64,000 bases of DNA, from NCBI GenBank assembly GCA_026399025.1, contig JAPLRU010000049.1:1-64000 (forward strand), given 5' to 3'. The translations under genes and the position numbers were made by a program. Every line of letters starts with the position of its first letter. Position 1 is the stretch's first letter. This document shows positions 10,415 to 31,656 of the stretch, one piece after another. The stretch is from Methylobacter sp. GTDB taxonomy: Bacteria; Pseudomonadota; Gammaproteobacteria; Methylococcales; Methylomonadaceae. A model generated the notes under the pieces. The model saw only the letters and a program-made list of their open reading frames with translations, did no database searches and was not told the origin of the DNA.

Positions 10415-10537
10415 AAATGAGCAATAGACACCCTGAATTCGAACTTGAAACACAAAGCGAAACTAAGCAAATTAGCTTGGAGAGCGTTACCCATCCTCAT
10501 TTTACTTACAGCTTGAAACCAGTAACCGGAGCTTTCT

Positions 10538-11815: not shown

Positions 11816-11821
11816 TTAAAG

Positions 11822-11862: not shown

Positions 11863-11920
11863 CGCCTCGGTCATAGCTAAGTTATATCATTAATAACTTA
11901 GCTATGACCGAGGCGCTTTT
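11863..11920 (+). terminator. Long perfect inverted repeat ending in T-run
   Basis: A 23-bp perfect stem (11863-11885 with 11893-11915) around a 7-base loop, followed by CTTTTTC. The stem begins CGCCTCGGTCATAGC. It is longer than a usual Rho-independent terminator and is inserted into, or fused with, a CACCACGAAG repeat. It probably ends transcription of the barrel gene. Confidence 0.65.
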
Positions 11921-12068
11921 TCTGTCCTGCATCGCCCCTTTTCCATGTCTTTCTAAGCCATTTCTTTAAAAGGCTTCAACACTACTGCGCCCCCGGCAAT
12001 AGGCACGGATACGGGAATTAAAAGTATAATACCGGCCAATATCCATAACTTAATATAAAGGCACCGCT

Positions 12069-13564: not shown

Positions 13565-13584
13565 AGTGTGTAAATGTGCTGAAG

Positions 13585-13729
13585 TAATAGAGTATCTACG
13601 GACTGCCCTTTCGCTTCCAATTGCTCTCCACCCCATTTCACAATGGGGGCAGTTATTTTCAGCTACGACGTTATGGCATACGCCGACAGGGACTTTCACC
13701 CTGTTGATAAATTGCCCTTGTGGGCGCAC
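13585..13729 (-). mobile_element. Probable 5' remnant of a group II intron
   Basis: Read on the minus strand, position 13729 begins GTGCGCCCACAAGGGC, the GUGYG 5' consensus of bacterial group II introns. It is followed by a domain I-like hairpin (ACAGGG TGAAAG TCCCTGT) and by GAAAGGGCAGTCCGTAGA-type sequence. It starts immediately after a strong hairpin (13730-13771), and group IIC introns typically insert behind terminator hairpins. There is no reverse transcriptase frame and no domain V, so only the first 145 or so bases remain. Confidence 0.45.
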
Positions 13730-13771
13730 GAGTGCAGGCTTTGCCTGCCGGAGCAGGCGAAGCCTGCACTC
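13730..13771. repeat. 19-bp stem hairpin (REP/terminator-like)
   Basis: GAGTGCAGGCTTTGCCTGC, a CGGA loop and its complement, with one mismatch. A related GGAGTGCAGGCT/TGCACTCC hairpin occurs at 39432-39475, so it is a dispersed repeat. Here it abuts the intron remnant and lies about 90 bases upstream of the SMC operon. Confidence 0.7.
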
Positions 13772-13862
13772 CAACCACTCCATCGTTTCGCTGTTTTAAT
13801 CATTAACTGAATTTGAAAACGCTGTAAGTGATTGTCTATTCGAATAACAAACATTCGCTTTT

Positions 13863-14657
13863 ATGCATATTGCAAACTATCTCGACAGGATTAAACAAGG
13901 CAAAGCCATTAATTTCGATAATTTTTTGAAGAAATTACAGGCGGAAGGCTTTGATGACCGAACAATTTTAAATACCTTCTTAACCCACAAACTTTCTAAA
14001 TCACGTTATCAAGTTGAGATTATTGACGAAGAACAGTTTGTCAAGCTTCAATGCAATTTTCCCGATTACACGATAACCGATAGAGTCTCGGCTGCGCAGG
14101 CTGGCGATAGCCATAAACATCCGGTCAGCCAATCGATGATTATTCTTTGGTCGTACCTTCAAAGCCATCCGGTAATCGTTTTAATTGATGCCAAGGACAT
14201 AACAGCTCCAGTTACTTTAGGCCAACGTTTACTGATTATTGAAAATCAGGAAAACTTTGTGCAAAAAGACCAAACCTTAACTTTTTTACAGCGCCAGTTT
14301 GTTGATTTTAATGAGAGAGCATTGGATATTGCGCACGGCTCAGGCAATGCCATCAGCAATCGTTTGAATAAAGCCTTTTTTAACCGCTACCAGCAAATCG
14401 ATTGCTTACTGGACTTAGATATTGGCGGACTGACAACCTTTGCCAATTTAGCTGAATTAACCGCCCATCCCCGGCTTCATTTTTTATTGCCGCCTTGTGC
14501 CGACCAACTATTGGCGAACTCTAAGCTGGCTTTACAAAATAAACATCGGGCTGCATTATGCAAATTTAAACAAAACTATCCCGCCTTACGACCGGCTATC
14601 GACTTGATGATTCATCACAAAAAAATGCTGGAACAGGAAATGTATCTACAGGAATAA
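13863..14657 (+). CDS. JetD/MksG-like TOPRIM protein of an SMC operon (short form)
   Basis: A 264-residue protein. The region 121-190 has the order expected of the DUF2220 TOPRIM domain in the Wadjet nuclease subunit JetD: LLIIENQENF (Glu127 as the metal-binding acid), GSGNAI (159-164), then CLLDLDIGGL (Asp184, Asp186, the DxD pair). The C-terminus contains KMLEQEM, matching the conserved Glu-Gln-Glu end of JetD proteins. Full JetD proteins are about 380-400 residues with an N-terminal arm; here that arm is much shorter. The gene is two bases from the SMC gene and leads the four-gene operon. By analogy it would cut plasmid DNA captured by the SMC complex. No good ribosome binding site is visible. 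The family assignment is from motifs; the shortened form is unusual. Confidence 0.62.
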   Translation: MHIANYLDRIKQGKAINFDNFLKKLQAEGFDDRTILNTFLTHKLSKSRYQVEIIDEEQFVKLQCNFPDYTITDRVSAAQAGDSHKHPVSQSMIILWSYLQSHPVIVLIDAKDITAPVTLGQRLLIIENQENFVQKDQTLTFLQRQFVDFNERALDIAHGSGNAISNRLNKAFFNRYQQIDCLLDLDIGGLTTFANLAELTAHPRLHFLLPPCADQLLANSKLALQNKHRAALCKFKQNYPALRPAIDLMIHHKKMLEQEMYLQE

Positions 14658-14659
14658 TC

Positions 14660-17566
14660 ATGGAAAATATGGACTTACTGAATACCAAACTTGCTTATTC
14701 AGTAAAAAAACTGATTGCGGTCAATTCCATCAGTTATTGCTATACCGAGTTGCCGATTGACCAACATTGCGCATTGTTCGGTCGCAATAATCTAGGTAAA
14801 ACCTCGTTGTTAAATGCTTTAAAACTGCATTTCTTTCCGGAAATCAGCTTTAACGACTGCAAAGCAAAATTTGCTTTTAAATCCTCCAAAGGCGAGCTGT
14901 ACTCCACCGAAGACAGCTACAGCTATTATTTTCCGTCAGACAGCAGTTTTTTAATTTTAGAGGCGGAAAATATACATGGTGCGTTTTGCTTGATTTTATT
15001 CAAATCCAATAGCAGCTTCGGTTATCAGCGTTTAGCGTTGCCGTGTGAATATGAAGCGATTCGTGACCGGTTTTGGGATATTCAAAACACAGATGTTAAT
15101 AACGGCTTGGGCAGCCCGGTTTCGGACTTAGGCATCCCGAAAATACATGCGTTGTATAACCAGTATAAAGCAGCGGGTGCGGTGTTGCTGACCACCAAGA
15201 AAGACATCAAGGAAAGATTGTTCAGCCATAACCCGATGCAGCGAACAAAAGGTCGTTATTGCCTGGTGCCGTTAAAAGAAGGCGGTTTGGAGCGGGAGCT
15301 GAGTGCGTTTCGCCAACTGATGAACTTTACCTTTGAGATTGCCAAAACCGACACCAAAGGCTTAACCGAAACCTTTGCCACCATCATCGAAAGCAACAAA
15401 ATCAACACTCAAGATAAATTGCACCAAGATTTGCAAGTCATTTTGGATGAATACAACGAGCTAAAGCAAACCCAGGACAAATTAAGAGCTATCGCGAATT
15501 ATCAAGACGATTTTAAACAGCTAAACAATATGTTTCAGAGTTTGCAAGCTTATAAATTGCAATTTGGCACTAGCTTTGTGGCTTATAACCTTTGTTTGCA
15601 CAAAACAACCACCGCGCTACAACAACAAATCGCTAAACTTGAGCCCAAGATTAAAAAGCTGTTATCCGAACAAGACAAGCTTAAAACTACCGAGGCCGCG
15701 CAAAGAGAAAGCATTGCCGACTTAACCGGGCAACTGACGGCTTTAAATAAAGACATTAAACAAGCCAATCAAAAAATAGCCCGTTTTCAGAAAATTCAAA
15801 CGGAATATCCGAATCTTAAGATTGCCGAGATCCGAACCGCGTTAAGCGCTTATCGCGAAGAGCTGGAAGAAGATATTGTGCATTTTAACGATAGACAGTC
15901 GGCGATTGATAAGCTCACCGTTACCGTGCAACAACATAAATCCAAAATCGCAGACCGGGACAAGAAACAACAAGCGATTGAACACCAAGATAAATTGTTA
16001 ACCAGCCAAATTGATCCACACAGCGCCGCCGTGCTGAGTAATATCAATAAGCGCTTTTCGGAATTTATCGCTAAACCCGATGCAGGGCAAGCCAAGACTA
16101 TCGAGCAGTTTGGTCAATTGTTCAAGCTTAGCGAATCTCGCATCGATTTTTTGGGTGAAACTTTTAGTACCGGACTTTTAAAATCGCCCCAACAAATCAG
16201 AGAGCAATTAATACGTGATCTTGATGATTTAAACGCGGAAATTCAACGTCTGGATTCCGATATTCAAAATTTGAATAAAAAAGCCAAAGCAACCGGTGAA
16301 TTTCAAAAAGCACAGTTGCAAGAAGTGGAAAAAAAATTACACGCCACTAAAAATGATTTGACCATCGTCAACGCCATCGAAGACATTCAACAGCAATGGC
16401 AAATTAAAACCGACGAAATAGAAGAAGCGGAAAACCTACAAAAACAACTGCAAAAACAAAAAGACGAAACCCAAAGCTTATTGGAGCAAAACCAAAGCGA
16501 TTACAGAGCCGCCAAACAAAACCTGGAGTCGCTGAATAAACAAGCACAGGAAGCGTCTTCACTATTACAACGCCTGCAAACGATCAAGCCCGATGACTTA
16601 CCGGAAACCGAATCAGCCGGCACTGTGTCGTTAAACGACCTGATCGAACTGGAAAGCGAGCAAGCCAAAATCAAGCATTTACAAGAAAACCTTGATCAAA
16701 AAATCAACGAATTTGTCCGATGCGGTCATTTTCCAGTACCGGTTGCAATACCCTACAGCAGTTACAACACCGAACAACAAAGCGACATTCTGCAAGCCTT
16801 AACCAATACCTTTGCCGCATTGCCCGATCAGTTGGAAACCTTGCAAAGCCGTATCATCGAACATAACAAAATGACCGGCACCAAGATTAGCGAACTTACC
16901 GGCAACCGCAGCCATATTCGAAGCTTTGTCAACAAAGTCAATAAACAATTCGAAAATTACAGCATCTCCAATCTGAAAGACATCAGAGTGGAAATCGAGC
17001 TGGATCATCGTTTTGAAGAACTGGTAAACGAATTGGATCGCACTAATTTACATACCACCGAAATTTATGATGCCAGTTTATATGACCGAATGAATCAATT
17101 CTGTGATTCTTTTTTCATCGGAGGCCGCGGTAACCGTATTCTGGAAATGAACAAAATCATTACCAACGTCAAATACAGTTACAAAAAAGAACATCAAGAC
17201 AAACGAGAAGAAAAAGACCAAAGTACCGGCACCAATGCGCTGATTAACTGCACCTTGCTGACCATATTATTGAGCGATTTGTTGGCGCAAGACAGCGAAC
17301 TGACCTTGCCGATCATCTTTGACGAGTTTAGTAGTCTGGATGAATACAATCAACGCACTGCGATACAAGCCGCCACCAAACACGGTTTTGCGTTATTTTG
17401 CGCCTCACCGACCCAATCGGCGGAAGTGGTTGCGGTGGTGGATCTTTATATTACGCTTGATGATTTTCATGCCACTACCATCTACGACCCAAGCCGCGAA
17501 CGGGATGTCGTGTTCCATCATTTTTGGGAGCGCCTGTACCAAGTGACGGAGCCGGAAGCCTTATGA
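14660..17566 (+). CDS. SMC/MukB-like ATPase (JetC/MksB-like)
   Basis: A 968-residue SMC-type ATPase. Walker A is GRNNLGKTS (41-49). Long Gln/Glu/Lys-rich coiled coils run from about 240 to 800, interrupted by a probable hinge. The C-terminal head has a signature-like DQSTGTNA (Ser855, a MukB-style STG in place of LSGGQ) and Walker B LPIIFDEFSSLD (Asp888-Glu889). Length matches MksB/JetC more than MukB (about 1480). It follows the TOPRIM gene by 2 bases and overlaps the next gene by 4 (ATGA), so the four genes are translationally coupled. Complexes of this kind translocate on and compact DNA; Wadjet versions recognise circular plasmids for cleavage. It could instead be a chromosome-organising condensin, but the TOPRIM neighbour favours defence. 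Confidence 0.88.
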   Translation: MENMDLLNTKLAYSVKKLIAVNSISYCYTELPIDQHCALFGRNNLGKTSLLNALKLHFFPEISFNDCKAKFAFKSSKGELYSTEDSYSYYFPSDSSFLILEAENIHGAFCLILFKSNSSFGYQRLALPCEYEAIRDRFWDIQNTDVNNGLGSPVSDLGIPKIHALYNQYKAAGAVLLTTKKDIKERLFSHNPMQRTKGRYCLVPLKEGGLERELSAFRQLMNFTFEIAKTDTKGLTETFATIIESNKINTQDKLHQDLQVILDEYNELKQTQDKLRAIANYQDDFKQLNNMFQSLQAYKLQFGTSFVAYNLCLHKTTTALQQQIAKLEPKIKKLLSEQDKLKTTEAAQRESIADLTGQLTALNKDIKQANQKIARFQKIQTEYPNLKIAEIRTALSAYREELEEDIVHFNDRQSAIDKLTVTVQQHKSKIADRDKKQQAIEHQDKLLTSQIDPHSAAVLSNINKRFSEFIAKPDAGQAKTIEQFGQLFKLSESRIDFLGETFSTGLLKSPQQIREQLIRDLDDLNAEIQRLDSDIQNLNKKAKATGEFQKAQLQEVEKKLHATKNDLTIVNAIEDIQQQWQIKTDEIEEAENLQKQLQKQKDETQSLLEQNQSDYRAAKQNLESLNKQAQEASSLLQRLQTIKPDDLPETESAGTVSLNDLIELESEQAKIKHLQENLDQKINEFVRCGHFPVPVAIPYSSYNTEQQSDILQALTNTFAALPDQLETLQSRIIEHNKMTGTKISELTGNRSHIRSFVNKVNKQFENYSISNLKDIRVEIELDHRFEELVNELDRTNLHTTEIYDASLYDRMNQFCDSFFIGGRGNRILEMNKIITNVKYSYKKEHQDKREEKDQSTGTNALINCTLLTILLSDLLAQDSELTLPIIFDEFSSLDEYNQRTAIQAATKHGFALFCASPTQSAEVVAVVDLYITLDDFHATTIYDPSRERDVVFHHFWERLYQVTEPEAL

Positions 17567-18945
17567 ATATCGCTTTAGACCGTACCTTAATATTACTGAT
17601 CGAACATAAAGACATGATGTTTCAGCTAATTGATTATATGGATCAGCATCAGCGTAAAGATTTACCCACCGAAGTGTTTTACAACGCCATTCGGGCAAAG
17701 TTCGACAGCATGGGCATTAAACGGGAAAAAGATCGGCTTAACGATGCGTTCGATCTGGATAATCTGCTCAAAACCGGCATTATTGCCGAAGCCAACAAAT
17801 CCCGCGGTACGCTGGCCTTTCAACCCGCGGTGTTGGAAATTTTCCGTTTATTCGATAAAGAGCGGGTGCGAGGATTGCGCAGTGTAGAGCTGGAGAACAT
17901 CCGCATTCAGTTGGAAAATGCCTATCAACTGCTCGAAGCCTTAAATTTTGCCGATGACAATATCGCTTTTTTGGAGCAACACGATCATCTGTTTGATTTA
18001 CTGCGCCGAATTAGCAGCCAAATCCAAAATAACACCGATCATTTGCAATATGAAGCCGACCGTTTATCAAAGCGCTTAGATCACGATCAGGCCTTATTGT
18101 CATTGCATGAAGCCCGTCAACATCGGGAAATATTAACTGAAGTAAAAAGAATTTATGACCGGGAAATCATTCCCACCTTAGAATTTCTTAACACCCGAGA
18201 ATATAGCAAAACCAAGGCGCCTCTAACCGTCATTGACGATATTAGCCGACTTTATAATATTCGGGGTTATGAAAACGACAGCTATTACATCGACCAATAT
18301 AAACTGTCGATACTCAGCCATTACAAAGCGGTAGAAAAAGTGAAACAAGCCTTGCAACGCTACTTGCATCAAGAGCGTCAACATAGGCTAACCTATAACG
18401 CCATTGAACAAGCATATTTACATTTACAAGCCTTGGCGCACAGCACCTTTACCGAAAGCTTAAACGAAAAATACATCTTTAAATTACTGGATGCGGACAG
18501 CATTTATTTTTCCGGCCTTAAAACCCACGCCGCCGGTCAAGAAGCTTGCATCGCATGGCATGACCGCGATCATGCGATTTATTTTAATGAATACCTGATC
18601 AATCAAAACGCCAAAAAACGTAGCAATAACCCGGCGGAAATCAAAACCTTTGATAGCCAACAGCCCAATGACCGGCACAATGCCATCAAGCGGCGCATCG
18701 AACAATTAATCAAGCGCTTTGATATTAAACCGCCGGTCGATGATTTATATGTGGCCATGCATCATTTTCTACTTGAGCAATTGCAACAGGATTATCAACT
18801 GAACTATTTACTGTACGGCATCAGCAGTTTTAAACAACGGCATGGCAAAAAATTCAAAGTACAAGTGAGTTTTAACCGCCCGCAGCAAAGCATCCGCTAT
18901 CAAAATCAAGTTCTGGAATATAACAAACGCGAATTTATCTTATGA
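17563..18945 (+). CDS. MukF/MksF-like kleisin subunit (JetA-like)
   Basis: A 460-residue, largely helical protein. The ATG at 17563 is chosen because it overlaps the SMC stop codon as ATGA; the frame is open further upstream, but only inside the SMC gene. The N-terminal 100 residues look like a winged-helix domain (LPTEVFYNAIRAKFDSMGIK, then a hydrophobic LAFQPAVLEIFRLF). The middle is coiled coil (about 150-230) and the C-terminal 100 residues form a second helical/strand domain (FKVQVSFNRPQQSIRYQNQV). This matches the N-terminal dimer, four-helix linker and C-terminal SMC-binding layout of MukF/MksF kleisins. The position, between the SMC and the MukE-like gene, supports it. Sequence identity to named JetA families cannot be judged here. 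Confidence 0.7.
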   Translation: MNIALDRTLILLIEHKDMMFQLIDYMDQHQRKDLPTEVFYNAIRAKFDSMGIKREKDRLNDAFDLDNLLKTGIIAEANKSRGTLAFQPAVLEIFRLFDKERVRGLRSVELENIRIQLENAYQLLEALNFADDNIAFLEQHDHLFDLLRRISSQIQNNTDHLQYEADRLSKRLDHDQALLSLHEARQHREILTEVKRIYDREIIPTLEFLNTREYSKTKAPLTVIDDISRLYNIRGYENDSYYIDQYKLSILSHYKAVEKVKQALQRYLHQERQHRLTYNAIEQAYLHLQALAHSTFTESLNEKYIFKLLDADSIYFSGLKTHAAGQEACIAWHDRDHAIYFNEYLINQNAKKRSNNPAEIKTFDSQQPNDRHNAIKRRIEQLIKRFDIKPPVDDLYVAMHHFLLEQLQQDYQLNYLLYGISSFKQRHGKKFKVQVSFNRPQQSIRYQNQVLEYNKREFIL

Positions 18946-19481
18946 TTAGTAACGAGCGCAGCCAAATCATCTACAACGACCTGATTAAAGGTAAAACCAT
19001 TAACAAACACAGCTACGTTCTTAAAACCAACGAGCTGGAAGAAAACCCGTTGTATAACGAGATTTTCATTAACTTTGATGATTATCGGCAACTTTACTTA
19101 CGCATCAATTATGAGTTGGTCCATAAAAACAGCAGCTTTTTCTTCATTCGCGAACTGAACGGTCAAGAGGCCAATGAAGCAACCATTAAGATTCAAGCTT
19201 TATTGATTATTATCGGGCGTATTGTTACCGAAAAAGGTTATCTTTTTGACGTGCTGACCGATTATCGGGCCGGTATCGGTTTGGCGGATTTAGCTAGCGC
19301 CGCATCGGAAGAGCGCTACAGCGATATTTTGCATACTTGTAAATTATGCTTGTCACGAGGGATTGAGGAAGAAATCAACAACCATTTAATTACCCGGAGC
19401 ATTATGTTTAAAAATAGCCGGGGATATTATGTGTTGACTGATGCAGGGCGGGCGTTTTTTGCTGAGTTGACTCGGGAGTAG
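18942..19481 (+). CDS. MukE/MksE-like winged-helix subunit (JetB-like)
   Basis: A 179-residue protein starting on an ATGA overlap with the kleisin gene. It has the features of MukE/MksE (KITE) proteins: an N-terminal region with FDDYRQLYLRINYELVH, a central winged helix (NEATIKIQALLIIIGRIVTEKG) and a second one ending in MFKNSRGYYVLTDAGRAFF. Such proteins bind kleisin and DNA as dimers. As the last gene of the operon it completes a TOPRIM-SMC-kleisin-KITE set. The gene order D-C-A-B differs from the orders I know for Wadjet systems. A downstream terminator lies at 19793-19821. Confidence 0.7.
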   Translation: MISNERSQIIYNDLIKGKTINKHSYVLKTNELEENPLYNEIFINFDDYRQLYLRINYELVHKNSSFFFIRELNGQEANEATIKIQALLIIIGRIVTEKGYLFDVLTDYRAGIGLADLASAASEERYSDILHTCKLCLSRGIEEEINNHLITRSIMFKNSRGYYVLTDAGRAFFAELTRE

Positions 19482-19963
19482 GTTTTTTCTTGCTTTCATC
19501 TTATTCTGGGAGAAGATTGGGATGAGGGGATTAAATAAAGTTTACCCCCTGTATTTACGAGTTATCGCAATTTTGCGTGTTGTGGTTGCTACACTCCGCC
19601 ATTCAGGGAAACACCGATGGCGATTTACTATTGCGAAACCGCCTTACGGACTTCTTTATCTAAAGCAAAGCTTGGTTATGCACAATGGGTGAGCAGTTCA
19701 ATAGATCGGGCAGATACTTTTTCTGTCCGACATTACCGCGCTATAAATGTCAGACAACACTTAATTTTCAACATTTTCCGATTTAACACACCAAAAAACG
19801 CCGTGGTCGGGCGGCGTTTTTCTACCTGAAATTACCGTGCAGTAAATGGCGGGCAACGAAAAGATGTCGCCCGCCCGCCACTGAAGTAAGAAGCGTATCC
19901 TCATCCTTAGAATACAAACGTCGTGCTCTTCACGGCGCTGTTCCGCGCTTAATCAACGGACGG
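19482..19963. other. Intergenic region with imperfect direct repeats
   Basis: Nearly 500 bases after the SMC operon without a supportable gene. The segment 19505-19545 resembles the GGGATGAGGGG repeat also found at 55450. Two imperfect direct repeats of about 29 bases, with the shape ATTACCG-GC-TAAATG-C-G-CAAC, start near 19730 and 19829. They flank the terminator at 19793-19821. A 70-codon frame at 19617-19829 runs through that terminator and is not credible. Confidence 0.35.
19793..19821 (+). terminator. Rho-independent terminator
   Basis: AAAAACGCCG, a short loop and CGGCGTTTTT form a 10-bp stem with a T-run. It is about 310 bases after the SMC operon and is the first strong terminator on the plus strand. 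The A/T tails make it potentially bidirectional. Confidence 0.7.
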
Positions 19964-20352
19964 TTAACTTTCATTCCTTATCGTATTTCCGGCCAAATTG
20001 GCAACCGCCCTGTTTGCCACGCCGAATAGCTTGATATTGTTTTTAATCGTACCGGCATAATTTTCAGCAATTCTCATTATGAAAAATATATTTAAATCAA
20101 AGTGTTATGAATTTAATTTCCAAGATTGTTTTTTATCCTACGGAATCTTATTTTTAACAGGTTTCGCAAAGCCTTATAAAACAAGGGGGAGCGATATTGT
20201 TACCAATTAGGCTTGTCGGTTACTTTGCAAGTATTGCAGTAGATCGCACTCGAATTTTAAAAACTAAAGCTTTATCCATTTGATTTTGTTTACGTTTCCA
20301 TAATGAGAATTGCTGCATAATTTTCATGCAAATGGCCACGAAAGATATTTTG
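19964..20352 (-). pseudogene. 3' fragment of a metallophosphoesterase gene, split by a MITE
   Basis: The segments 19964-20064 and 20316-20352 match, with scattered differences, the last 130 or so bases of the metallophosphoesterase gene at 36302-36973, including its stop and some of the sequence after it (19915-19963 resembles 36250-36301). Shared blocks include TTGATATTGTTTTTAATCGT at 20031-20050. The rest of the gene is missing and a 251-bp element sits in the middle, so this is a dead paralogous copy. It ends against a REP-like hairpin at 20363. Confidence 0.7.
20065..20315. mobile_element. 251-bp MITE with 17-bp inverted repeats and 9-bp target duplication
   Basis: The perfect 17-bp terminal inverted repeats are CAGCAATTCTCATTATG at 20065-20081 and its reverse complement at 20299-20315. 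They are flanked by the direct repeat CATAATTTT (20056-20064 and 20316-20324). The intact homologue at 36302-36973 has a single CATAATTTT at this place, so the empty site is visible in the same window. The interior is AT-rich and has no reading frame, so a transposase must act in trans. I do not recognise the family. Confidence 0.82.
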
Positions 20353-20362
20353 TAACTACTCA

Positions 20363-20410
20363 GCGCTCTATCGTGCGGTTCATACCTCACCACACGCTAC
20401 GTTAGAGCGC
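20363..20410. repeat. REP-like hairpin, copy 2
   Basis: Outer arms GCGCTCTA and TAGAGCGC pair perfectly. The inner core CGTGCGGTTC, then CCTCACCACACG, is shared with the hairpin at 513-551. It lies immediately after the decayed metallophosphoesterase fragment, just as copy 1 abuts a transposase remnant. Confidence 0.6.
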
Positions 20411-20531
20411 ATGGTACGCGGTACAGGGTGGATAACGTCGATGATCTCGTGATCGTAAAAACAAAAGGGTCACAAAAACAAGCGGTAGAGAGCAGGCTTA
20501 CGCCTACCCTCCCCATTTTTTATTTTCAAAT

Positions 20532-21086
20532 TTACATTTTTTTCTTAGCTGTCCCTAGCAAGATTCGCTCGATCTTATCTCCCGGCTGCACCTGTAAACC
20601 CGCCGCTTCACAGTTCCAGGAGCTGGAAGAATTCTTAATGATTTTTTTCTCGCCAGTCGTCAGGTTCTTACATGTAACCTGTTGTATTTTAATCGATGTG
20701 GACGTACTCGGTGGGTTTTTAACACTGAAAGAGTGTCGCCCAAGTTCAACTTCTCCTCGGGTTACGATGACATCATAAGCACCCTCAGGCAGTTCGTGAT
20801 CGAGCCACACCAATTCCCCCCATGTCGTCAAGGAGTCAAAACATATTGTCCCGTCAGGAATGGGTGGGAAATCGATATGGATAACATTCTCCGAAATTGA
20901 GGCCTCGGCATTTTTGGGAACGCAACTGTCGCCCGCCACACCATAGACAGCCACCAATATAGCTTGGTGGTCAGTAGGATTGGGGGGAATAATTGCTACA
21001 GACGCTTGAGAGGAAATAGAAATTCCATAGATAAGCATCATGCCAATGATGCTAAAGCCGCGCCGTAAGATATTCTTAATATTCAT
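20532..21086 (-). CDS. Secreted protein of unknown function
   Basis: A 184-residue protein with an N-terminal signal peptide (basic MNIKNILRR, a hydrophobic core and a cleavage-like ISSQASVA near residue 29). AAGG precedes the start. The mature part has four to five cysteines (DSCVP, ICFD, TCKN, WNCEA) and alternating hydrophobic strands, suggesting a small disulfide-stabilised beta protein. I do not recognise a family. It lies 177 bases after the subtilase gene on the same strand, separated by a hairpin with a T-run, so it may have its own promoter or be only partly cotranscribed. A role connected to the protease cannot be excluded. Confidence 0.68.
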   Translation of the reverse strand: MNIKNILRRGFSIIGMMLIYGISISSQASVAIIPPNPTDHQAILVAVYGVAGDSCVPKNAEASISENVIHIDFPPIPDGTICFDSLTTWGELVWLDHELPEGAYDVIVTRGEVELGRHSFSVKNPPSTSTSIKIQQVTCKNLTTGEKKIIKNSSSSWNCEAAGLQVQPGDKIERILLGTAKKKM

Positions 21087-21132
21087 TTGAGTGACCTTGA
21101 GTTAATAAATTTAGAAGAGAATAGAAAAATAG

Positions 21133-21203
21133 CGGGGGCAAGTCTTGTATCGCGCACAACCGCGCTTAAGTTTTAGATAAATACAAGATCTGTCCCCGTT
21201 TTT
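21133..21203. terminator. Long imperfect inverted repeat with T-run
   Basis: CGGGGGCAAGTCTTGTAT at 21133-21150 pairs with ATACAAGATCTGTCCCCG at 21181-21198, followed by TTTTTCC. A second small hairpin, GCCCCG/CGGGGC, lies at 21220-21240. The T-run is on the plus strand, but both flanking genes are on minus, so its orientation for them is uncertain. Confidence 0.45.
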
Positions 21204-21263
21204 CCTTGTTGCTAAGGAAGCCCCGGCGGTTAAGCGGGGCAGTAAAAACTTCAAAAACGGCAA

Positions 21264-23012
21264 TTAATCATTTGACGGCGGCACTCGTATAAATCGCCTG
21301 GTAGTATTGTCACCTGCGCCATTCACCACCAAGGGGGTGGTATAAATATTTAAAGAAGGGCATAAGGCATTCGGAAGTGTCGCTGGAGGAATCCCACCAG
21401 TACACACTTCAAGACCCTTTAAATAGTTATACAAATTATCCATCCCGGTATGGTCAGCGTCAGTTAAGTTAGTGTCTATCGTGTTACACTGCGTAGTAAT
21501 CTGACAAATAACCGCTATCAATCCAGACACATAAGGTGCTGAGAACGATGTACCGTTCACACCATACATACTCTGTAAATTATTAGCGTCAATGTTTACC
21601 CATGAATAAGCAGGAGTGCCATTACCAGACATCGCAGCGACACCAATGCCGGGTGCAAACATATCCACTTGGCTACCATAATTAGAAAGAATAGCCTTTT
21701 TATCTCCAGCGCCATCGGGGCAGAGTTGATATAAAGGCGAAGGAGTCGATAACATACACGACGCTGCAACATCCAACACTTCTGTCATAGTTTGAGGAGT
21801 AGTATTAGCCGCTGTTATGCTGACAGCCTCTTGTCTAAATGTATTTGGATTCCAAACACCATTGCCGGCAGCAACCACAGTAATGACACCAGAGTTATAA
21901 GCTGCTTTTACCACGGCTTGCAAAGATGCATTAATCCCATCATGCCAACTACCATTAACAACAGAACCGCGTGAGGCATATTTAGCAAGCCAGTCAAAGG
22001 CAGCTACAACATAAGAAAAATTTACATTTTCTGCATTAGCAGCACAAGTGCTCGGAATAGCCGGATCTCCAGTGGTGATATTAACAATTCTGGCATATTG
22101 CCTTTTACCGATGCCGTATGTTTTACCAATAGCAACCGAAGCCACTTTTGTACCATGGTCGTTATAAACCGTATTACTTCCTGCTTTCTTACACCCTTGA
22201 GCCGTATTAGCTGAATTATTACCCGCGAAACTTATAGCGCGAATATTACTAGGATCTCCGGGGGATTGATCACGGAATTCATCCAGTACCGCCGGGTAAA
22301 CACCCGTAAAATCCAGGCCAGTGTCCAAAATGTAAAGCCAATGCTCTTCATTTTGGTTACCAGTGTCATTCCAAAAAGTATTGTTTACCGGATTAGTAGT
22401 GCAATTAGAAACCGGATTGGTGGTGGTATAGTAGGCGGGATTACAATAGGGAAATGGTCTAATTGGGTTATCGATAATCTCATTGTGCCACCAATGATAT
22501 GTATTATCTAAAGCCCAGTCACTTCCTCCCTGCACTGCCGGTTTGTCCATCCTATCCAACGCCCATCCGGGATTTGGGGTCGGTCCCTGTACATGATCAA
22601 TTGTGCCAACAACATTCTGTTCAACCAGCTTAACTAACGGATTGTGGCTTAATCGCTCGGCTTCTACTGCGTCCATATGAACAAATACAGAATTAATAGT
22701 CTCGTAAACGTACTCAACTTCGCCTCTTAGTTGTAACACACTTTCAATATAACGCATTTGCATGGTGTTCCCTTTGTACCCCATTTTATGGGGAGGTACA
22801 AATCCGGGCCGATCTTTCAGCGTTAAATCAGGAGCTGGAATTAACGCGACCTCTCCGGGCAGCGTATCACGAAACATTATAAAATATTCACCATCAATAA
22901 ACTTAGGAGCTGCAACCGCAGGCGTCGCATCGACGGGCTCCGAGGGAGGCTCAACCGCAAACACCGCAAAATTACACATCAACAACGCCAGCCATAATAA
23001 TCGTATTTTCAT
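21264..23012 (-). CDS. Secreted S8 subtilisin-like serine protease
   Basis: A 582-residue exported protease. The signal peptide is at 1-20 (LLWLALLMCNFAVFA). An I9-like inhibitory propeptide at about 40-140 follows, with EYFIMFRDTLPG and a VYETINSVFVHMD strand. The S8 catalytic triad is Asp230 in YILDTGLD, His286 in NDHGTKVAS and Ser489 in NGTSFSAPYVSG; the oxyanion Asn is in AAGNG (about 381-385). The domain has about ten cysteines and long Asn/Thr-rich insertions. The last 60 residues are a short C-terminal extension without a recognisable sorting signal. It should mature in the periplasm or outside the cell. It stands near other secreted-protein genes, and with the RTX protease it makes two extracellular proteases in the window. 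Confidence 0.9.
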   Translation of the reverse strand: MKIRLLWLALLMCNFAVFAVEPPSEPVDATPAVAAPKFIDGEYFIMFRDTLPGEVALIPAPDLTLKDRPGFVPPHKMGYKGNTMQMRYIESVLQLRGEVEYVYETINSVFVHMDAVEAERLSHNPLVKLVEQNVVGTIDHVQGPTPNPGWALDRMDKPAVQGGSDWALDNTYHWWHNEIIDNPIRPFPYCNPAYYTTTNPVSNCTTNPVNNTFWNDTGNQNEEHWLYILDTGLDFTGVYPAVLDEFRDQSPGDPSNIRAISFAGNNSANTAQGCKKAGSNTVYNDHGTKVASVAIGKTYGIGKRQYARIVNITTGDPAIPSTCAANAENVNFSYVVAAFDWLAKYASRGSVVNGSWHDGINASLQAVVKAAYNSGVITVVAAGNGVWNPNTFRQEAVSITAANTTPQTMTEVLDVAASCMLSTPSPLYQLCPDGAGDKKAILSNYGSQVDMFAPGIGVAAMSGNGTPAYSWVNIDANNLQSMYGVNGTSFSAPYVSGLIAVICQITTQCNTIDTNLTDADHTGMDNLYNYLKGLEVCTGGIPPATLPNALCPSLNIYTTPLVVNGAGDNTTRRFIRVPPSND

Positions 23013-23038
23013 ATTTTTTATCCTAGAAACATAACAAA

Positions 23039-23057
23039 ATGCCCGTTATACGGGCAT
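23039..23057. promoter_or_regulatory. Perfect hairpin in the subtilase leader
   Basis: ATGCCCGT TAT ACGGGCAT, an 8-bp perfect stem, sits 27 bases upstream of the subtilase start. There is no T-run in the direction of the gene, so it may be an operator or leader structure rather than a terminator. Confidence 0.4.
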
Positions 23058-23075
23058 GTGGCGAGTGCCACGGAA

Positions 23076-23183
23076 TTATCCCAGTGTGTGGAAAGTAAAC
23101 CTTTCATTGTGTGTACCATTGAAAAATAACACAGTATTAGGGTCAAATTTGCCAGATTCTTCCATTCCTACATATTTCATCAT
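23076..23183 (-). CDS. Possible 35-residue small protein upstream of the subtilase
   Basis: A short frame starting with two ATGs, preceded by GAGGAGCGG about 12 bases upstream, and ending 64 bases before the subtilase start. The product contains KYVGMEESGKFD and ends in FHTLG. It has no signal peptide or known motif. It could be a real small gene, the eroded end of another gene, or chance. Confidence 0.25.
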   Translation of the reverse strand: MMKYVGMEESGKFDPNTVLFFNGTHNERFTFHTLG

Positions 23184-23443
23184 TGGTAATTCCGCTCCTC
23201 AATGTGCCACTCAATGCGTCATTGCCTGCATCACTAGTGCGACGTTAAGCGACGGCGCATTGTGATTCAAAAATCGGCTCATGTATTGACAGCCAAAGCT
23301 GATCCCTTGTAGGCATATACTCACATGCACTCAAAATATAAGTATAAGCACATGAATTTAAAAGATAATAATGATTAAAAATATTCCCCATGGCTCGCAA
23401 AATACACTTCTTGATTAGCAATAGTCTTCAATTAACCAATTCT

Positions 23444-23467
23444 ACCGGCAATGATTGCCGGTTTTTA
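23444..23467 (+). terminator. Rho-independent terminator overlapping the truncated adhesin
   Basis: ACCGGCAA TGA TTGCCGGT followed by TTTTT: an 8-bp perfect stem with a T-run. It overlaps the first open codons of the adhesin fragment, which shows that the 5' end of that gene has been replaced by unrelated sequence. Confidence 0.72.
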
Positions 23468-25984
23468 AACTACAAGAAGAAGATCCCGATAGCCGCAACA
23501 CCTTGAGTATTATTAACTCCGGTTTAACTGCCGGTCTCTACGGTAGTTGGACATTAGCAAACATGAGCGATTCTACTTATACGTTGAATAACGCTATGAC
23601 CGCGATTCAGTCTCTGGGCGAAGGTCAGCAACCAAGCGAAACCTTAGCTTATGACATTCAGGATAACGATCCGGCCAAACCGTTAACCAGCAGTGCGACC
23701 ATCACCGTAAACATAGAAGGCAGCAACGACGCGCCAATGTTGGCGCTTCCCGTTATCGATCAAACCGGACAAGCCGGTAAGCCGATCTCGTATAAAATTG
23801 CGGACAATACCTTTACCGATATTGACCAAAGCGATGTGCTGACATTGTCCGCGCAATTAGTGAACGGTAATCCTTTGCCGACTTGGCTGAACTTCGATCC
23901 AATTAGCGGCACATTGTCGGGTACACCGAGCCTAGCAGGCGATTTGCAAATCCAGGTAACGGCAACGGATACCGGCGGACTTTCCGCATCCGACGTGTTT
24001 ACATTGGCCATTGCCGAACAAAAAAACGCGAGCGTGTCTGGATTTGTTTATCTGGATGCCGATAACAACGGCCTTAAAAACGCTCTGGAAACGGGATTAG
24101 CCGGTGTTACGATCAACTTAACCGGCACCGATAACTTAGGCAATTCCATCGCGCTTTCCACTCTCACCGATGCCGATGGCAGTTATCTTTTCGACCGCCT
24201 GAATTCCGGCACTTATCAACTCAACGAAACACAGCCAAATTATATAGATGGCAAAGACAGCGCCGGCAGTCTGGGCGGCATCGTCAGCAACGACCAGATC
24301 AGCGCCATCACACTGAAAGCGGGCGAAAACAGCAGCAATAACAATTTCGGTGAACAACGGGCGGCGAGTTTAGGCGATAAAGTCTGGAACGACAGCAACG
24401 CCAACGGCATTCAAGACGCAAGTGAATCGGGGATAGCGGGGGTTAGCGTAAAACTGCTCAATACGGCGGGGGTCTGTGCAGTCGATAACCACGACCGACA
24501 ACCAAGGCAATTATCTGTTCAATCAATTGGCGCCCGGTACTTATACCGTACAAGTTACAGCGCCGAATAACTATGCTTTTACCGGTAGCAATCAAGGCAA
24601 CAACGACACGCTGGATTCCGATGTCGATCCACTGACCGGTAAAACCCAAGCTATCACCTTAATTACCGGTGAAAACAACCTTAGCTACGATGCAGGTTTA
24701 TCGATAAAGCCCGCTTCATCGACTTGTTTGACTTTCAACTTTAAAGGCAATTCGGCTACCGACGGCACGGACGGCAATATTCGCAGTTATACCGAAGACA
24801 ACGTATCGGTCAATGCCAGCGCGTTTAGCCGGGATAAATCGACCGGCGATTGGAACAAAGCTTGGCTGGGGAGCTATTCAGGCGGTTTGGGCGTGACCGA
24901 TAGCAGCGAAAAATCAGGCAGCGGCAATACCCACACCGTTGATAATACAGGGCGTGACAATTATGTTTTATTCGAATTTTCTACAGCGGTCGTCGTTGAC
25001 AAAGCTTATCTGGGCTACGTGCTGAACGACAGCGATGCCAAGGTGTGGGTCGGCACCTTCAACAGTCCTTTTAACCATCATTTGAAGTTGAGCGATAGCG
25101 TTCTTAGTCATTTCGGTTTCACCGAACTGAATCAAACCACATTAAGCTCTGCCCGTTGGGCCGACCTGAATGCACAAGAGATCTCGGGCAACACCTTGAT
25201 AATTGCGGCGGATACCACGGATAAGTCGCCCGAAGACAATTTTAAAATTCAACAGCTTAAAGTTTGCGTACCGGGAATTCCGGATTCGCATTCTTGCGCA
25301 TTCGATTCCGAAGACGCTCCCGGCGTCGGGACGATCGGCTTCTGGAAACAGTGGACGGCGGTTTGGGATGACGATAACAGCAACGACTGTCTATTTAATA
25401 ACAAAGCCAATTTTGCCGACGCGGACATTCTGTATACAGTGACTGACCCGGTAACCGGGACCTGCTCCGGCAAAGGTCTCTTGGTGGGCGACTGGAATGG
25501 TAACGGCGCCACCGATCCTTCGGAGAGAACGCTTTTTTATTCGCTGACTGAAGCCAAGGCTATTTTATCCGCATCGGATAGCAGCCAAGATTGCCGCTAC
25601 CTGATTGGTAAACAACTGCTTGCTACTTGGTTAAACGTCATCGCCGGGAACAACGCCGATAACATCGAAACCGATATTAACAACGGCATCGAATGGTTGC
25701 AAAATCATACGCCTAACGAAGGCGGCTCCAGTTATGGCGACGGCAATCTGACGCTCAATGCATCGGCCTTTAAAGTATCGTCTTCAAACCAGGGCTGGCA
25801 GGTCGTGGCTAACCCTGATCCGGCGCATAGCGGGAACTTTTGCGGCGCGGCTATTAAAAATGTATTGGATTATTACAACAACACCGGAGCGGGCTTCGCT
25901 ATCGATCGCGACAGTGATGATATTGACGGGGACTTAGTCAGCTTGCTGGGTTTACAAACGTATCGGCAGGAGTTTCATGCTTAA
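23455..25984 (+). pseudogene. 5'-truncated, frameshifted large adhesin (VCBS, Ig-like, SdrD B-type repeats)
   Basis: The frame begins abruptly inside a VCBS-type repeat (GLYGSWTLANMSDSTYTLNN then a PSETLAYDIQDND strand). A putative Ig/cadherin-like domain follows (PLPTWLNFDPISGTLSGTP), then two SdrD B-like carboxypeptidase-regulatory repeats (VSGFVYLDADNNGLKN and LGDKVWNDSNANGIQD). At the run of five G's at 24468-24472 the frame shifts; removing one G would continue LLNTAG into SVQSITTTDNQGNYLFNQL. The second part carries the end of the repeat and a C-terminal region with GTIGFWKQW, found in similar surface proteins. There is no start codon with a signal peptide, and a terminator overlaps the 5' edge. 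Originally it was probably a secreted or surface protein. The frameshift could also be a sequencing error. Confidence 0.75.
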
Positions 25985-26062
25985 ACCGTCGTTATTTAAA
26001 TAAACGGCCGTACTACCCGGTCATAAAGTATGAACGCCACACCGCTAATGCAATATCAACCT

Positions 26063-26101
26063 CAGTCTTGTAGGGCGCGCCCAGCCTTCCCTACAAGACT
26101 G
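26063..26101. repeat. 13-bp stem hairpin after the adhesin remnant
   Basis: CAGTCTTGTAGGG at 26063-26075 pairs perfectly with CCCTACAAGACTG at 26089-26101. There is no T-run. The rest of the gap 25985-26298 holds nothing recognisable. Confidence 0.6.
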
Positions 26102-26298
26102 CAAGTATTTCGCCGGTCATGATTTTATGCCTTATCCGCCACCCGGTAGGTAATGGCGCTTATTGCTTGAGAAAAGTTAACGCCCTATCCTTACAAACAC
26201 CTGTATCTCACTAAGCGATGGTTAGCTTTATGATGGCTAAGAGCTGTGTGATTTAATCAACCGTCGATGTCTCTATTGGGCGTTAGCCATGTGCGGCT

Positions 26299-26970
26299 AT
26301 GCACAACGTTAATTTTCTGAAAACTCATATGCAGAATTATCATCCCCCGGAATATAAAAAGTCTCAGTTTCACTGCATTCATTGCGGCGTCTATTCCTTT
26401 CATTCTTGGCAAAACTTTTACTGCTGGAATAAATTACATGCCGGCTACGCTATCCATAAACCGCTGGAGTTTTGTGTGTGTGAACATTGCCAAAAAAGCT
26501 CGTACTGGTACGAAGAACGCATGGTCGTTCCCGCGGTAGCGCTCGTCCCGCCCGCTCATGTAGACATGCCGCAACAGTGTATCGCGGACTATGATGAGGC
26601 CAGAGGCATTGTTGCGATTTCTGCCAGAGCGGCGACGGCTTTACTAAAGCTCGCGCTTCAGAAATTGATGGTTGCGCTGGGGGAAAAGGGTAAAAACATC
26701 CACGAAGATATTGACAGTCTGGTTGAGCAAGGCTTGCCTGTTGAGGTGCGGCAAGTTCTTGATGCTTGTGGTATTGCAGGCAATAACTCGGCTCGTCTTG
26801 GAGAAATCGAAGTCAGCGATACAGCGGAAATCGCCTATCACTTATTCAGCGTTATTAACTTCGTTGTTGAAGACAGAATTTCGAGACCGATGAGTCTTCA
26901 GTCCCTGTTCGCGCAGCTTCCCACAGCGCTTATAAAGTCTGAGGAAAAACACGATGGACCGGATCATTAA
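26299..26970 (+). CDS. DUF4145 domain protein with N-terminal zinc ribbon
   Basis: A 223-residue protein. The N-terminus has two Cys pairs, CIHC (about 30) and CEHC (about 69), forming a treble-clef or ribbon-like zinc site with several Trp/Tyr residues. Residues about 90-210 match DUF4145: EARGIVAISARAATALLKLALQKL, then a hydrophobic helix, a VRQVLDACGIAGNNSARLGEIE segment where the family has an Arg-x-x-Gly-Asn turn, and a closing helix. DUF4145 is HEPN-like and is often found with restriction or defence genes or as a stand-alone. An alternative ATG at 26329 is possible; neither start has a good ribosome site. There is no operon partner. The function is unknown. Confidence 0.72.
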   Translation: MHNVNFLKTHMQNYHPPEYKKSQFHCIHCGVYSFHSWQNFYCWNKLHAGYAIHKPLEFCVCEHCQKSSYWYEERMVVPAVALVPPAHVDMPQQCIADYDEARGIVAISARAATALLKLALQKLMVALGEKGKNIHEDIDSLVEQGLPVEVRQVLDACGIAGNNSARLGEIEVSDTAEIAYHLFSVINFVVEDRISRPMSLQSLFAQLPTALIKSEEKHDGPDH

Positions 26971-27011
26971 TTAATGGCCGGAACGGATAAAACGACATCG
27001 TTCCCACGCTT

Positions 27012-27176
27012 CGGAGACTGTGAAAGTATTATCAAAATCAGTTTAAAAACCTATTCACCACGAAGATACGAAAATTTCAATGCATTGAGTTTAAACAATT
27101 ATTTCCCCTTCGTGAACTTCGTGTCTTCGTGGTGAATGCTTTTGTTCTAAAACGGATACTTTCACACTCTCTCCGG
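27012..27176. mobile_element. MITE-like palindromic repeat (CACCACGAAG family), complete copy
   Basis: A 165-bp element bounded by CGGAGACTGTGAAAGTAT and the inverse of CGGAGAGAGTGTGAAAGTAT, with an inner inverted repeat TTCACCACGAAG ... CTTCGTGGTGAA. The same order of blocks is seen at 57318-57545 (inverted, with an insertion) and, with decayed ends, at 35967-36090 and 61152-61300. It has no reading frame. Confidence 0.75.
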
Positions 27177-27197
27177 ACGATACCACTCCAGCAGTAC

Positions 27198-27245
27198 GGG
27201 ACGCAGGAGCGTCCCTCGCTGCATTCCCACGCCGGAGCGTGGGAA
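27198..27245. repeat. Tandem hairpin repeat
   Basis: Two perfect hairpins in a row: GGGACGC AGGA GCGTCCC (27198-27215) and TTCCCACGC CGGA GCGTGGGAA (27224-27245). This is a repeat type common between genes of many proteobacteria. A related TCGTTCCCACGC arm lies on the other side of the MITE-like element, near 26998. Confidence 0.65.
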
Positions 27246-27350
27246 CGATAAAACTCATTGAAATTGAAAACGCTGTAATTCATATTTTATGTTTATTAAG
27301 GGGCAAGGCGCCCGATTAAACTCATATCAGTTTATTCTTGAAGGTCGACA

Positions 27351-30300: not shown

Positions 30301-30395
30301 TTACGATTCTGGCCGGCGCCGGGTTGCCGCTGCTGGCCAATGAAGCGATGAAAGGGATCGACTTTACTACCTTTAATCGGGGCACTCAAAAATGA
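27351..30395 (+). CDS. P2-type cation-transporting ATPase with N-terminal HMA-like domain
   Basis: A 1014-residue P-type ATPase. Residues about 15-90 form a ferredoxin-like HMA_2-type domain (HNRVAGRIRLKVPGL) without the CxxC metal motif. The cation ATPase N-terminal region, TGES actuator loop (DESPLTGESLP), PEGLP in M4 (VAAVPEGLPAVATTT), phosphorylation motif DKTGTLT (Asp450), TGDQ and the hinge TGDGINDGPALK follow. M6 contains LLWINLITDIFPALALALDP, with the Asn and Asp used by Ca2+/Mg2+-type P2 pumps. The last 160 residues hold further membrane segments. No cysteine-rich metal-binding site argues against Cu/Zn transport; Ca2+ or another divalent ion is more likely. Its stop overlaps the start of a MetK-like gene by 4 bases, so the two are coupled, an unusual pairing. 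Confidence 0.88.
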   Translation: MMDAETQHHSAQNYLLIIHNRVAGRIRLKVPGLYRSERLRTKLESTLSAVNEIRFVSASTLTGNLLIEYTTSEDSSELPVDIARLLETVLGHPLIRHIETIDRPARKVLRKPKKAEAAHYQTQPMQLWHTLSGTQVIDFLHSSEQGLSQDMAAQRLAQYGPNLLSEQSPRSSLHLFAKQFMSAPVAMLGVSAAVSLATGGVADTVVIVAVVMVNSVIGYLTEKAAEKTINALGQLTPQSAVALRDGKKQAIAMPEVALGDVLVLAPGSYIPADARLLAGHRLSVDESPLTGESLPIGKNNDYVGEQDTPLGDRQNMVYRGTTVTGGDGQAIVVATGRHSEIGKIQDLVGLTKTPITPLQKQIDDMGMQLVLLSSGICVLVFAVGLLRGRPLPHMVMSAISLAVAAVPEGLPAVATTTLALGIKNMKRQKVLIRQLPAVENLGSVQVICLDKTGTLTLNQMRVVTLQTLHIGIKVKQDGFYRENAKVDLYRSDQTLRDLMQVLVLCNESIPVNGKDLQGSPTENALLQVAMDAGEEVQALRAQRPLIHVDYRTEDRPYMISVHALADGQFFAAVKGNPAEVLELCRQCSIDGRMETLSEDQRKAILTWNQKLGADALRVLGVAYCITVEADAYKRRQFIWLGLVGMEDVIRPGMAELMAEFHAAGIETVMITGDQSSTAYSVGKRLGLSGAQNKTLEIVDSGNLEKLDPSVLAGLVNRTTIFSRVSPAHKLRIVEALQRNGKVVAMTGDGINDGPALKAANIGVTLGEKGSDVARSVADVILADDDLTTMVTAIREGRAIYDNISKSLHFLLATNLSEIEVMLVSAALGGADILNPRQLLWINLITDIFPALALALDPAEVDVLKRPPRDPNAAIVSRGDYAKLLRESSVISAGALGVYGFSRFRYGPGQQAGTHAFMALTLAQLLHAYRCRSERTSIFAAKNRPSNRYLDTAVGLSAVLQMLAATLPPLRGLLKLSPVGVTDMLTILAGAGLPLLANEAMKGIDFTTFNRGTQK

Positions 30396-31579: not shown

Positions 31580-31656
31580 GTTCGGCATCTGACTAAACCA
31601 AGACTATCTGGTATCATGGCGGCCCTCAATTTATCCATTTTTATAAAGGACTACCC

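What the first reader, a model, noticed from the sequence alone, without database searches (positions are those of the whole stretch)
13863..19481. Four-gene SMC operon with short TOPRIM protein in the order D-C-A-B
Seen: four coupled genes (gaps of 2, -4 and -4 bases) encoding a 264-aa protein with IIEN, LDLD and LEQE motifs, a 968-aa SMC ATPase with an STG signature, a 460-aa kleisin-like protein and a 179-aa KITE-like protein. Known: Wadjet/MksBEFG systems combine MukF-, MukE- and MukB-like subunits with a JetD TOPRIM nuclease that cuts circular plasmids. Inference: this is a Wadjet relative with a truncated nuclease (no long N-terminal arm) and a gene order that I do not associate with the described types, so it may be a distinct subtype.
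Basis: partly seen in the sequence, partly recalled or inferred. Interest (0 to 1): 0.75.

Follow-up and report, generated by a model that had tools for sequence, protein, structure and literature searches.

The report
Compact plasmid-cutting SMC defence operon
Four coupled genes in a methane-oxidising bacterium encode a DNA-pulling SMC motor with an unusually small DNA-cutting partner; the same unusual gene order recurs in related aquatic bacteria, and the set is probably an unnamed cousin of the Wadjet/MksBEFG anti-plasmid systems.

Summary
Window 13863-19481 holds four coupled genes in the order D-C-A-B: a 264-aa TOPRIM protein, a 968-aa SMC ATPase, a 460-aa MukF-like kleisin and a 179-aa MksE-type KITE. 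It is a conserved module: of 39 loci with the D gene (window included), 32 show D-C-A-B; the other 7 are broken, cut at contig ends or, once, a lone D. The key catalytic residues are kept in 45 of 45 D rows, duplicates included, with D186 changed to E in two rows. The SMC head tree puts the module with MksB-type SMCs, away from Wadjet I and MukB. PADLOC models of Wadjet I-III do not recognise it. The short nuclease is not unique: MksB-type A-B-C-D operons also have a D of 277-296 aa. Patchy occurrence, an insertion-like position, defence genes beside some copies and occurrence on two large plasmids fit an accessory defence system. Best reading: a compact MksBEFG/Wadjet-type plasmid-restriction machine with a minimal nuclease, a new variant of a known kind. 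Function is untested, and a published survey (PMC7617805) may already list such operons unnamed.

The parts
13863..14657 (+). D: 264-aa minimal JetD/MksG-like TOPRIM nuclease (E127, N128, D184, D186, E257-Q258-E259)
   Evidence: AF2 model pLDDT 83.3, pTM 0.62; Foldseek best matches are TOPRIM proteins incl. Topo VI-A, Spo11, JetD; profile-profile match to type I JetD E 8.4e-7 and to short MksG E 5.2e-9; residues kept in 45 of 45 rows, except D186 to E in L035/L090, the same record
14660..17566 (+). C: 968-aa SMC ATPase (JetC/MksB-like), Walker A GRNNLGKT, signature STGT, Walker B IIFDEF
   Evidence: motifs; head tree; NF040859 weak hit E 9.3e-9
17563..18945 (+). A: 460-aa kleisin (JetA/MksF/MukF-like): N-terminal winged helix, helical middle, low-confidence linker, C-terminal winged helix
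   Evidence: AF2 model pLDDT 75.8, pTM 0.47; Foldseek top 10 = nine MukBEF/MukEF chains and one JetABC chain, best E 1.2e-3; profile match to NF040857-type kleisins E 9.9e-5 but probability 58%
18942..19481 (+). B: 179-aa KITE protein (JetB/MksE-like)
   Evidence: Pfam PF21980 MksE 53.2 bits, cut-off 27; family profile's weak best PDB hit is MukE, E 0.033
13565..31581 (.). segment absent at the corresponding place of one same-genus genome (G013): probable insertion that carries the system and other genes (or a deletion there)
   Evidence: blastn of the window against L120: 12022-13562 aligns, long alignment resumes at 31582 about 0.95 kb later, with only two short repeat-like matches between

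Best explanation
The operon encodes an SMC-nuclease complex that works like Wadjet/MksBEFG. C with A and B forms a MukBEF-like SMC motor that loads on DNA and extrudes loops. When it has drawn a small circular replicon tight, it presents bent DNA to a dimer of D, whose TOPRIM sites make a double-strand cut, so incoming plasmids (or other circular DNA) are lost. Shown here: the four-protein composition, conserved order, intact ATPase and TOPRIM motifs, predicted folds of D and A, and accessory distribution. Inferred: complex assembly, loop extrusion, D dimerisation and activation, and plasmid restriction. D consists of a short winged-helix-like N-terminal segment plus TOPRIM and lacks the JetD arm; it is therefore inferred to dock on and be activated by the motor differently from type I JetD.
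For: Composition and motifs. D-C-A-B in 32 of 39 loci. Catalytic residues kept in 45 of 45 D rows, duplicates included, apart from D186 to E in two rows. The own genome has a separate Smc, 1047.8 bits, so this set is not its only condensin. Patchy: 4 of 23 genomes of the genus, own included. The segment holding it is absent from the corresponding place in G013. Neighbours in some loci: Gabija beside L094 and a type III restriction enzyme beside L035; CBASS cyclase and 4TM effector (hits; placed at L093 by me from sequences); type I-F Csy1 about 6 kb after the Photobacterium copy; a divergent WYL gene before D on the Methylophaga plasmid. C occurs in 2 of 72,556 plasmid records, both large (320 and 599 kb), as expected if small circles are the target.
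Against: No functional data. At many loci, the window's included, neighbours are ordinary genes: of 105 neighbour proteins scanned, the table shows one family (WYL) in 2 members and the other shown families in 1 member each. PADLOC JetA/JetB models do not hit the window proteins. Low G+C is weak support only: 0.42 for the system, but 0.452 for window 1-12000 and 0.466 for the whole 13565-31581 segment. Some relatives are broken: C in L026, D and C in one Methylovulum MAG (L033/L034), a lone D in L092. MksB-type SMCs include operons with no D found (L105-L107), and Pseudomonas MksBEF acts in chromosome segregation (PMC7485682: title and start of abstract, passages). Matches of A and D to solved structures are weak.
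Confidence: 0.7

Rival explanations
1. Accessory chromosome condensin: C-A-B organises the chromosome like Pseudomonas MksBEF, and D is a topology-handling enzyme or is secondary.
For: The SMC groups with MksB-type SMCs. Some MksB-type operons show no D. Many loci have ordinary neighbours.
Against: Own Smc present. Patchy in the genus, 4 of 23. D stands first in the operon and its catalytic residues are kept. Copies on large plasmids and beside defence genes.
Confidence: 0.12
2. Anti-phage system: the same machine mainly targets phage genomes or replication intermediates.
For: Neighbours at some loci include Gabija, CBASS, type III restriction and type I-F Csy1.
Against: Known relatives with JetD/MksG act on plasmids (PMC10586767, PMC10123090; passages). 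No direct evidence here.
Confidence: 0.13
3. Degenerate or selfish remnant without defence function.
For: One relative has a broken C (L026), one MAG has D and C in pieces (L033/L034), one has D without C-A-B (L092).
Against: All four genes are intact and coupled in the window, and the order is kept in 32 of 39 loci. D keeps its catalytic residues, and ATPase motifs are found in most SMCs, although distinct relatives fall to 20-24% identity with the window proteins.
Confidence: 0.05

Closest known systems
MksB-type SMC operons with order A-B-C-D and a short TOPRIM protein (L064-L067, L108, L109; relatives of NCBIfam NF040857-NF040859)
   Same: SMC ORFs of 917-936 aa; MksE-family KITE (tested for L064); D of 277-296 aa (ORFs of L066 and L109 over-extended at the start), with EQE in L064-L067 and L109 but not in L108; D of L067 matches Pfam DUF7281 over its cut-off, L064 below it; joined with D-C-A-B in the SMC head tree
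   Different: Gene order A-B-C-D; SMC on a long separate branch; D only profile-level similar to the window D (E 5.2e-9)
Wadjet type I / MksBEFG (E. coli GF4-3, P. aeruginosa PA14, C. glutamicum)
   Same: kleisin + KITE + SMC + TOPRIM nuclease in one operon; same TOPRIM residues (E-N, D-x-D, Q-E) by profile alignment
   Different: Five JetD read here are 404-439 aa, ten SMC ORFs 1115-1226 aa, order A-B-C-D where read; separate clade with MukB in the tree
Pseudomonas-type MksBEF (L105, over the NF040859 cut-off) and MukBEF
   Same: SMC with KITE and kleisin core
   Different: No nuclease gene found in L105 or annotated in the E. coli mukFEB stretch; chromosome segregation role (PMC7485682, title and passages)
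Topoisomerase VI A subunit / Spo11
   Same: winged-helix-like segment followed by TOPRIM; Foldseek 1d3y E 6.2e-4 over 249 columns, 8urq E 3.7e-3
   Different: paired with an SMC motor; the catalytic tyrosine position was not tested; whole-chain TM-scores are low (0.39-0.40)

Membership tests
Wadjet types I-III as modelled in PADLOC-DB | JetA model match | tested here: not met
   no JetA hit at E<=1; only a Csm2 chance hit
Wadjet types I-III as modelled in PADLOC-DB | JetB model match | tested here: not met
   0 families for the window protein; relative L038 JetB1 1.9e-5
Wadjet types I-III as modelled in PADLOC-DB | JetC model match over the ATPase heads | tested here: not met
   best stretches of the seven best JetC hits lie in the coiled coil (E 1.8e-5 and weaker); one short N-terminal stretch, residues 26-56, E 0.012
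Wadjet types I-III as modelled in PADLOC-DB | JetD model match over full length | tested here: not met
   18.9 bits, E 1.5e-4, residues 183-262 against 325-406 of 409
Pfam JetD_C (PF09983) | score over the curated cut-off | tested here: not met
   window D: no Pfam hit. The Marinobacter relative L038 reaches 22.2 against 22
MukBEF-like SMC (Mks/Wadjet group) with nuclease | SMC over 890 aa with Walker motifs, kleisin 400-1200 aa, KITE 150-800 aa, co-directional and consecutive (criteria in PMC7617805, passage) | tested here: met
   968/460/179 aa, coupled, motifs present. The authors' own profiles were not available
MukBEF-like SMC (Mks/Wadjet group) with nuclease | MksE-type KITE | tested here: met
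   PF21980 53.2 bits, cut-off 27
MukBEF-like SMC (Mks/Wadjet group) with nuclease | MukF-type kleisin fold | tested here: met
   Foldseek top 10 are nine MukBEF/MukEF chains and one JetABC chain, though best E only 1.2e-3 and TM-scores 0.2-0.4
MukBEF-like SMC (Mks/Wadjet group) with nuclease | TOPRIM nuclease flanking the operon | tested here: met
   (fold and residues; activity not tested)
MukBEF-like SMC (Mks/Wadjet group) with nuclease | JetD-like N-terminal CAP (winged helix) before TOPRIM | tested here: inconclusive
   residues 1-65 predicted as helices plus two strands; whole-chain match to Topo VI-A only
MukBEF-like SMC (Mks/Wadjet group) with nuclease | restricts plasmid transformation | not testable with these tools
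   needs an experiment
NCBIfam Mks equivalogs NF040857-NF040859 | score over cut-off | tested here: not met
   SMC 33.7 of 1900 bits, KITE 18.2 of 400, no Mks hit for the kleisin

The most novel reading that the evidence does not exclude
D-C-A-B is a separate, unnamed lineage of SMC-nuclease immunity. A minimal Spo11/Topo VI-A-like nuclease without the JetD arm is switched on by a compact SMC motor through a different contact, so autoinhibition and sensing of DNA size or topology would differ from Wadjet I. It would be among the smallest natural SMC-plus-nuclease machines.
Probability: 0.35. Interest if true: 0.68.

Novelty: new variant of a known kind. Interest (0 to 1): 0.52.

Why it matters
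Most work so far is on Wadjet type I (stated in PMC10586767, passage). A compact set with a 264-aa nuclease tests which parts of JetD are needed to sense small circles. It lies on the MksB side of the tree, where operons with and without a nuclease coexist, so it bears on whether chromosome condensins arose from defence systems. In the two annotated plasmid records found, the four proteins are called 'hypothetical protein', and the PADLOC models do not recognise the window's set, so its frequency is probably underestimated.

Tried and rejected
Relation to Lamassu, DndD or Rad50 through the SMC hits in PADLOC/NCBIfam: rejected, because those hits lie mostly in the coiled coil. PDB sequence search with the D profile gave only chance hits (three guanylate kinases, one pyridoxine phosphate oxidase); the fold search settled it. 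PDB sequence searches with C and A gave only chance coiled-coil or short hits. Search for type II and III JetC in 120 genomes each found nothing, nor in the control genomes, so these types are missing from the tree. MukB was not found in 56 genomes of the class, so E. coli MukB was taken. Viral contigs: no relative of D confirmed; phages: no match of C. Profile comparison of A with type I JetA gave nothing useful (E 0.042, probability 1.2%). Promoter-like and terminator-like sites are fewer than in shuffles (11 against 15.9; 5 against 8.1); one terminator-like site overlaps the end of B at 19474-19497. No clear flanking repeat that would mark an integration site (one 20-base match, 95%). L097 was caught by the D profile (E 5.6e-5), but its SMC (1255 aa) and order (C first, D last) differ; it was kept out of the counts and in the first tree only. 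Low G+C as a sign of transfer: weak, see evidence against.

Rows dropped before counts: HMM seeds were limited by length, so broken and partial genes were left out. The tree used 30 distinct SMCs of 38 rows, after near-identical copies were removed. One search left out L013-L018, L020, L022, L023 and L090, judged to be the same records as loci (contig lengths or sequences agree). L033 and L034 are two contigs of one MAG. For some searches, 105 of the 172 neighbour proteins were given; the tables show only the 25 commonest families, so other defence genes may be missed.
Full report
What is there. The window (genome G000, 5.23 Mb) is in the same genus group as G006. The G006 contig has the same length (54,062 bases) as the contig titled Methylobacter sp. 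DP16D_bin.19, so the host is probably a Methylobacter-like methanotroph (inference). Four genes run on the + strand with gaps of 2, -4 and -4 bases.

The D protein. No Pfam or NCBIfam family matches. An AlphaFold2 model from 12 aligned relatives has mean pLDDT 83.3, pTM 0.62; the other four models have 64-76. Foldseek's six matches at E<=0.001 are five T7 primase/replisome chains and the Topo VI A subunit; Spo11 follows at 3.7e-3 and JetD 7til at 1.2e-2. Profile comparison aligns E127-N128, D184-x-D186 and E257-Q258-E259 with the E-N, D-x-D and Q-E positions of type I JetD (E 8.4e-7, TOPRIM part only), and with the short D of MksB-type operons (E 5.2e-9). At 13 chosen sites, 45 of 45 rows (duplicates included) keep E127, N128, D184 and EQE; D186 is E in two rows of the same Thalassotalea record. 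Upstream of TOPRIM, R74, S83 and H84 are kept in 44 of 45 rows; L096 has K, S, K. This may correspond to the R..VDTKF stretch of the type I alignment; that correspondence is my reading of the two alignments.

Short, but not uniquely so. D ORFs in complete loci are 259-329 aa, median 268. The five type I JetD used are 404-439 aa. The longest matches of short D proteins to JetD1 begin at profile position 227 or 229 of 409 (L096; L067), one weak hit at 179 of 391 (L038), so much of the N-terminal part of JetD is missing. MksB-type A-B-C-D operons also carry a short D: 290, 291 and 296 aa (L064, L065, L067), 277 aa (L108), 296 aa for L066 when trimmed to its homologous start.

The other subunits. 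C has intact ATPase motifs. Among 30 distinct SMCs, window included, Walker A is found by a simple pattern in 27 and Walker B in 29. A has no informative sequence family, but its model (pLDDT 75.8; residues 296-336 and 356-362 below 50) shows N- and C-terminal winged-helix-like ends around a helical middle. The best ten PDB matches are nine chains of MukBEF or MukEF entries and 8as8_E of E. coli JetABC, with E 1.2e-3 to 1e-2 and low whole-chain TM-scores. Its profile matches the kleisin of the MksB-type operons at E 9.9e-5, but hhalign probability is only 58%. B is MksE-type.

Conservation of the module. 12 of 200 relatives' genomes hold D (own included), and 9 of 398 genomes of the phylum sample (own included; one of the nine, G553, is not of this module). 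The scan of genome contigs gave 26 loci, with titles in Gammaproteobacteria or, once, an unclassified proteobacterium. The order in 39 loci is: DCAB 32 (B only 101 aa in L095; two small genes between C and A in L125), DCCAB 1 (C broken, L026), DC 4, D alone 2. Of the four DC, three end at the contig end (L030, L031, L041). L033 holds the end of D and only the first 201 profile positions of C, and L034, of the same MAG, another piece of D. L092 is an intact lone D. No other order was seen for this family. Loci were found through D, so sets without D would be missed. G439 and G640 each hold two copies (L089/L094; L093/L096).

Place in the SMC tree. On 370 head columns, IQ-TREE puts D-C-A-B, MksB-type SMCs and L097 together (UFboot 98), and Wadjet I with MukB (98), with the own Smc as outgroup. 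D-C-A-B was not monophyletic there, since L096 sat with the MksB branch at 33. Without L097 and Smc, FastTree gives D-C-A-B as one clade (0.83), next to the MksB branch (0.91) and apart from Wadjet I (0.915). Branches are long and types II/III are absent, so this is a moderate result.

Accessory behaviour. 4 of 23 genomes of the genus hold D (own included). The upstream alcohol dehydrogenase is found in 7 of 23. In G006 and G012, which have both, the two lie on different contigs. In G013 (80% complete, no D found) the dehydrogenase is followed after about 0.95 kb by the genes that lie at 31.6-37 kb in the window, so 13.56-31.58 kb is probably an insertion here or a deletion there. The system's G+C is 0.42 against 0.478 for the window, but 0.452 for window 1-12000 and 0.466 for the whole segment, so composition says little. 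The host has its own Smc. Neighbours include Gabija (L094) and a type III restriction enzyme (L035), and a CBASS cyclase with 4TM effector (hits; assigned to L093 from its sequences, an inference). At the window and many other loci the neighbours are ordinary. Only 2 of 72,556 plasmid records match C at E<=1e-10: Methylophaga thalassica, 320 kb, and Photobacterium damselae, 599 kb. Both have D-C-A-B, and the four proteins are annotated 'hypothetical protein'. Large carriers are what a system that spares large replicons would allow, but two records prove nothing.

Literature. Seen as passages found by term, not read whole: PMC10586767, PMC10123090, PMC7617805, PMC10512200, PMC12287153, PMC12153180, PMC8649781, PMC7485682, PMC13040014, PMC8565338, PMC8954581. 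Wadjet is classed in three types by sequence and operon organisation (PMC10586767); mksFEBG is the order in C. glutamicum and Pseudomonas (PMC10123090). PMC7617805 made a broad survey of Wadjet-group operons whose size criteria these operons meet; its Data S1 was not open to me, so they may be listed there without a name. I saw no named D-C-A-B type in the listings of searches or in those passages. Doron 2018, Petrushenko 2011 and Deep 2022 are not held, so gene orders of types II and III were not checked. That MksB has shorter coiled coils is recalled from the Petrushenko abstract.

Mechanism. From relatives (PMC10586767, PMC13040014 passages): JetABC is proposed to extrude a circle until DNA at JetD is sharply bent and cut. 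The same parts are here, with an arm-less nuclease. I hold plasmid restriction most likely (0.7), with phage or chromosome roles as rivals.

Noticed in passing
L092:7615-8502 (G427:C6): A lone D gene with all catalytic residues and no C, A or B in the 19 kb read, after a glycerol-kinase-like gene (name by eye from the sequence).
   Followed up: partly
L097:5989-12508 (G553:C1): Another set on the minus strand: 1255-aa SMC-like, 213-aa, 412-aa and 291-aa D-like protein, in transcription order C first and D last; no Jet model of PADLOC matches any of the four at E<=0.01.
   Followed up: partly
NCBIfam NF040857 and NF040859: Names look exchanged: the 926-position SMC-like model is called MksF and the 412-position kleisin-like model MksB, while PMC10123090 uses MksB for the SMC.
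   Followed up: partly
L034:8001-8518 and L033:121-1082: In a Methylovulum MAG the D gene is split over two contigs with residues about 149-174 in both, and C stops after about 200 residues, as if an insertion or rearrangement broke the system.
   Followed up: partly
L125:11938-12712: Photobacterium plasmid copy has two small genes (DUF5406 family and a hypothetical) between C and A.
   Followed up: no
L124:7230-8057, L093:3172-3993, L096:5298-6155: WYL-domain gene divergent to, and directly upstream of, D on the Methylophaga plasmid (annotated); the two similar genes upstream of D in L093 and L096 are probably the two WYL members. Possible regulator.
   Followed up: partly
Pfam PF23947 (DUF7281): This domain of unknown function matches the TOPRIM part of a short MksG protein (39.4 bits, cut-off 27, L067; L064 22.3 bits, below it), so it is probably a TOPRIM nuclease domain. 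No held paper names it.
   Followed up: partly
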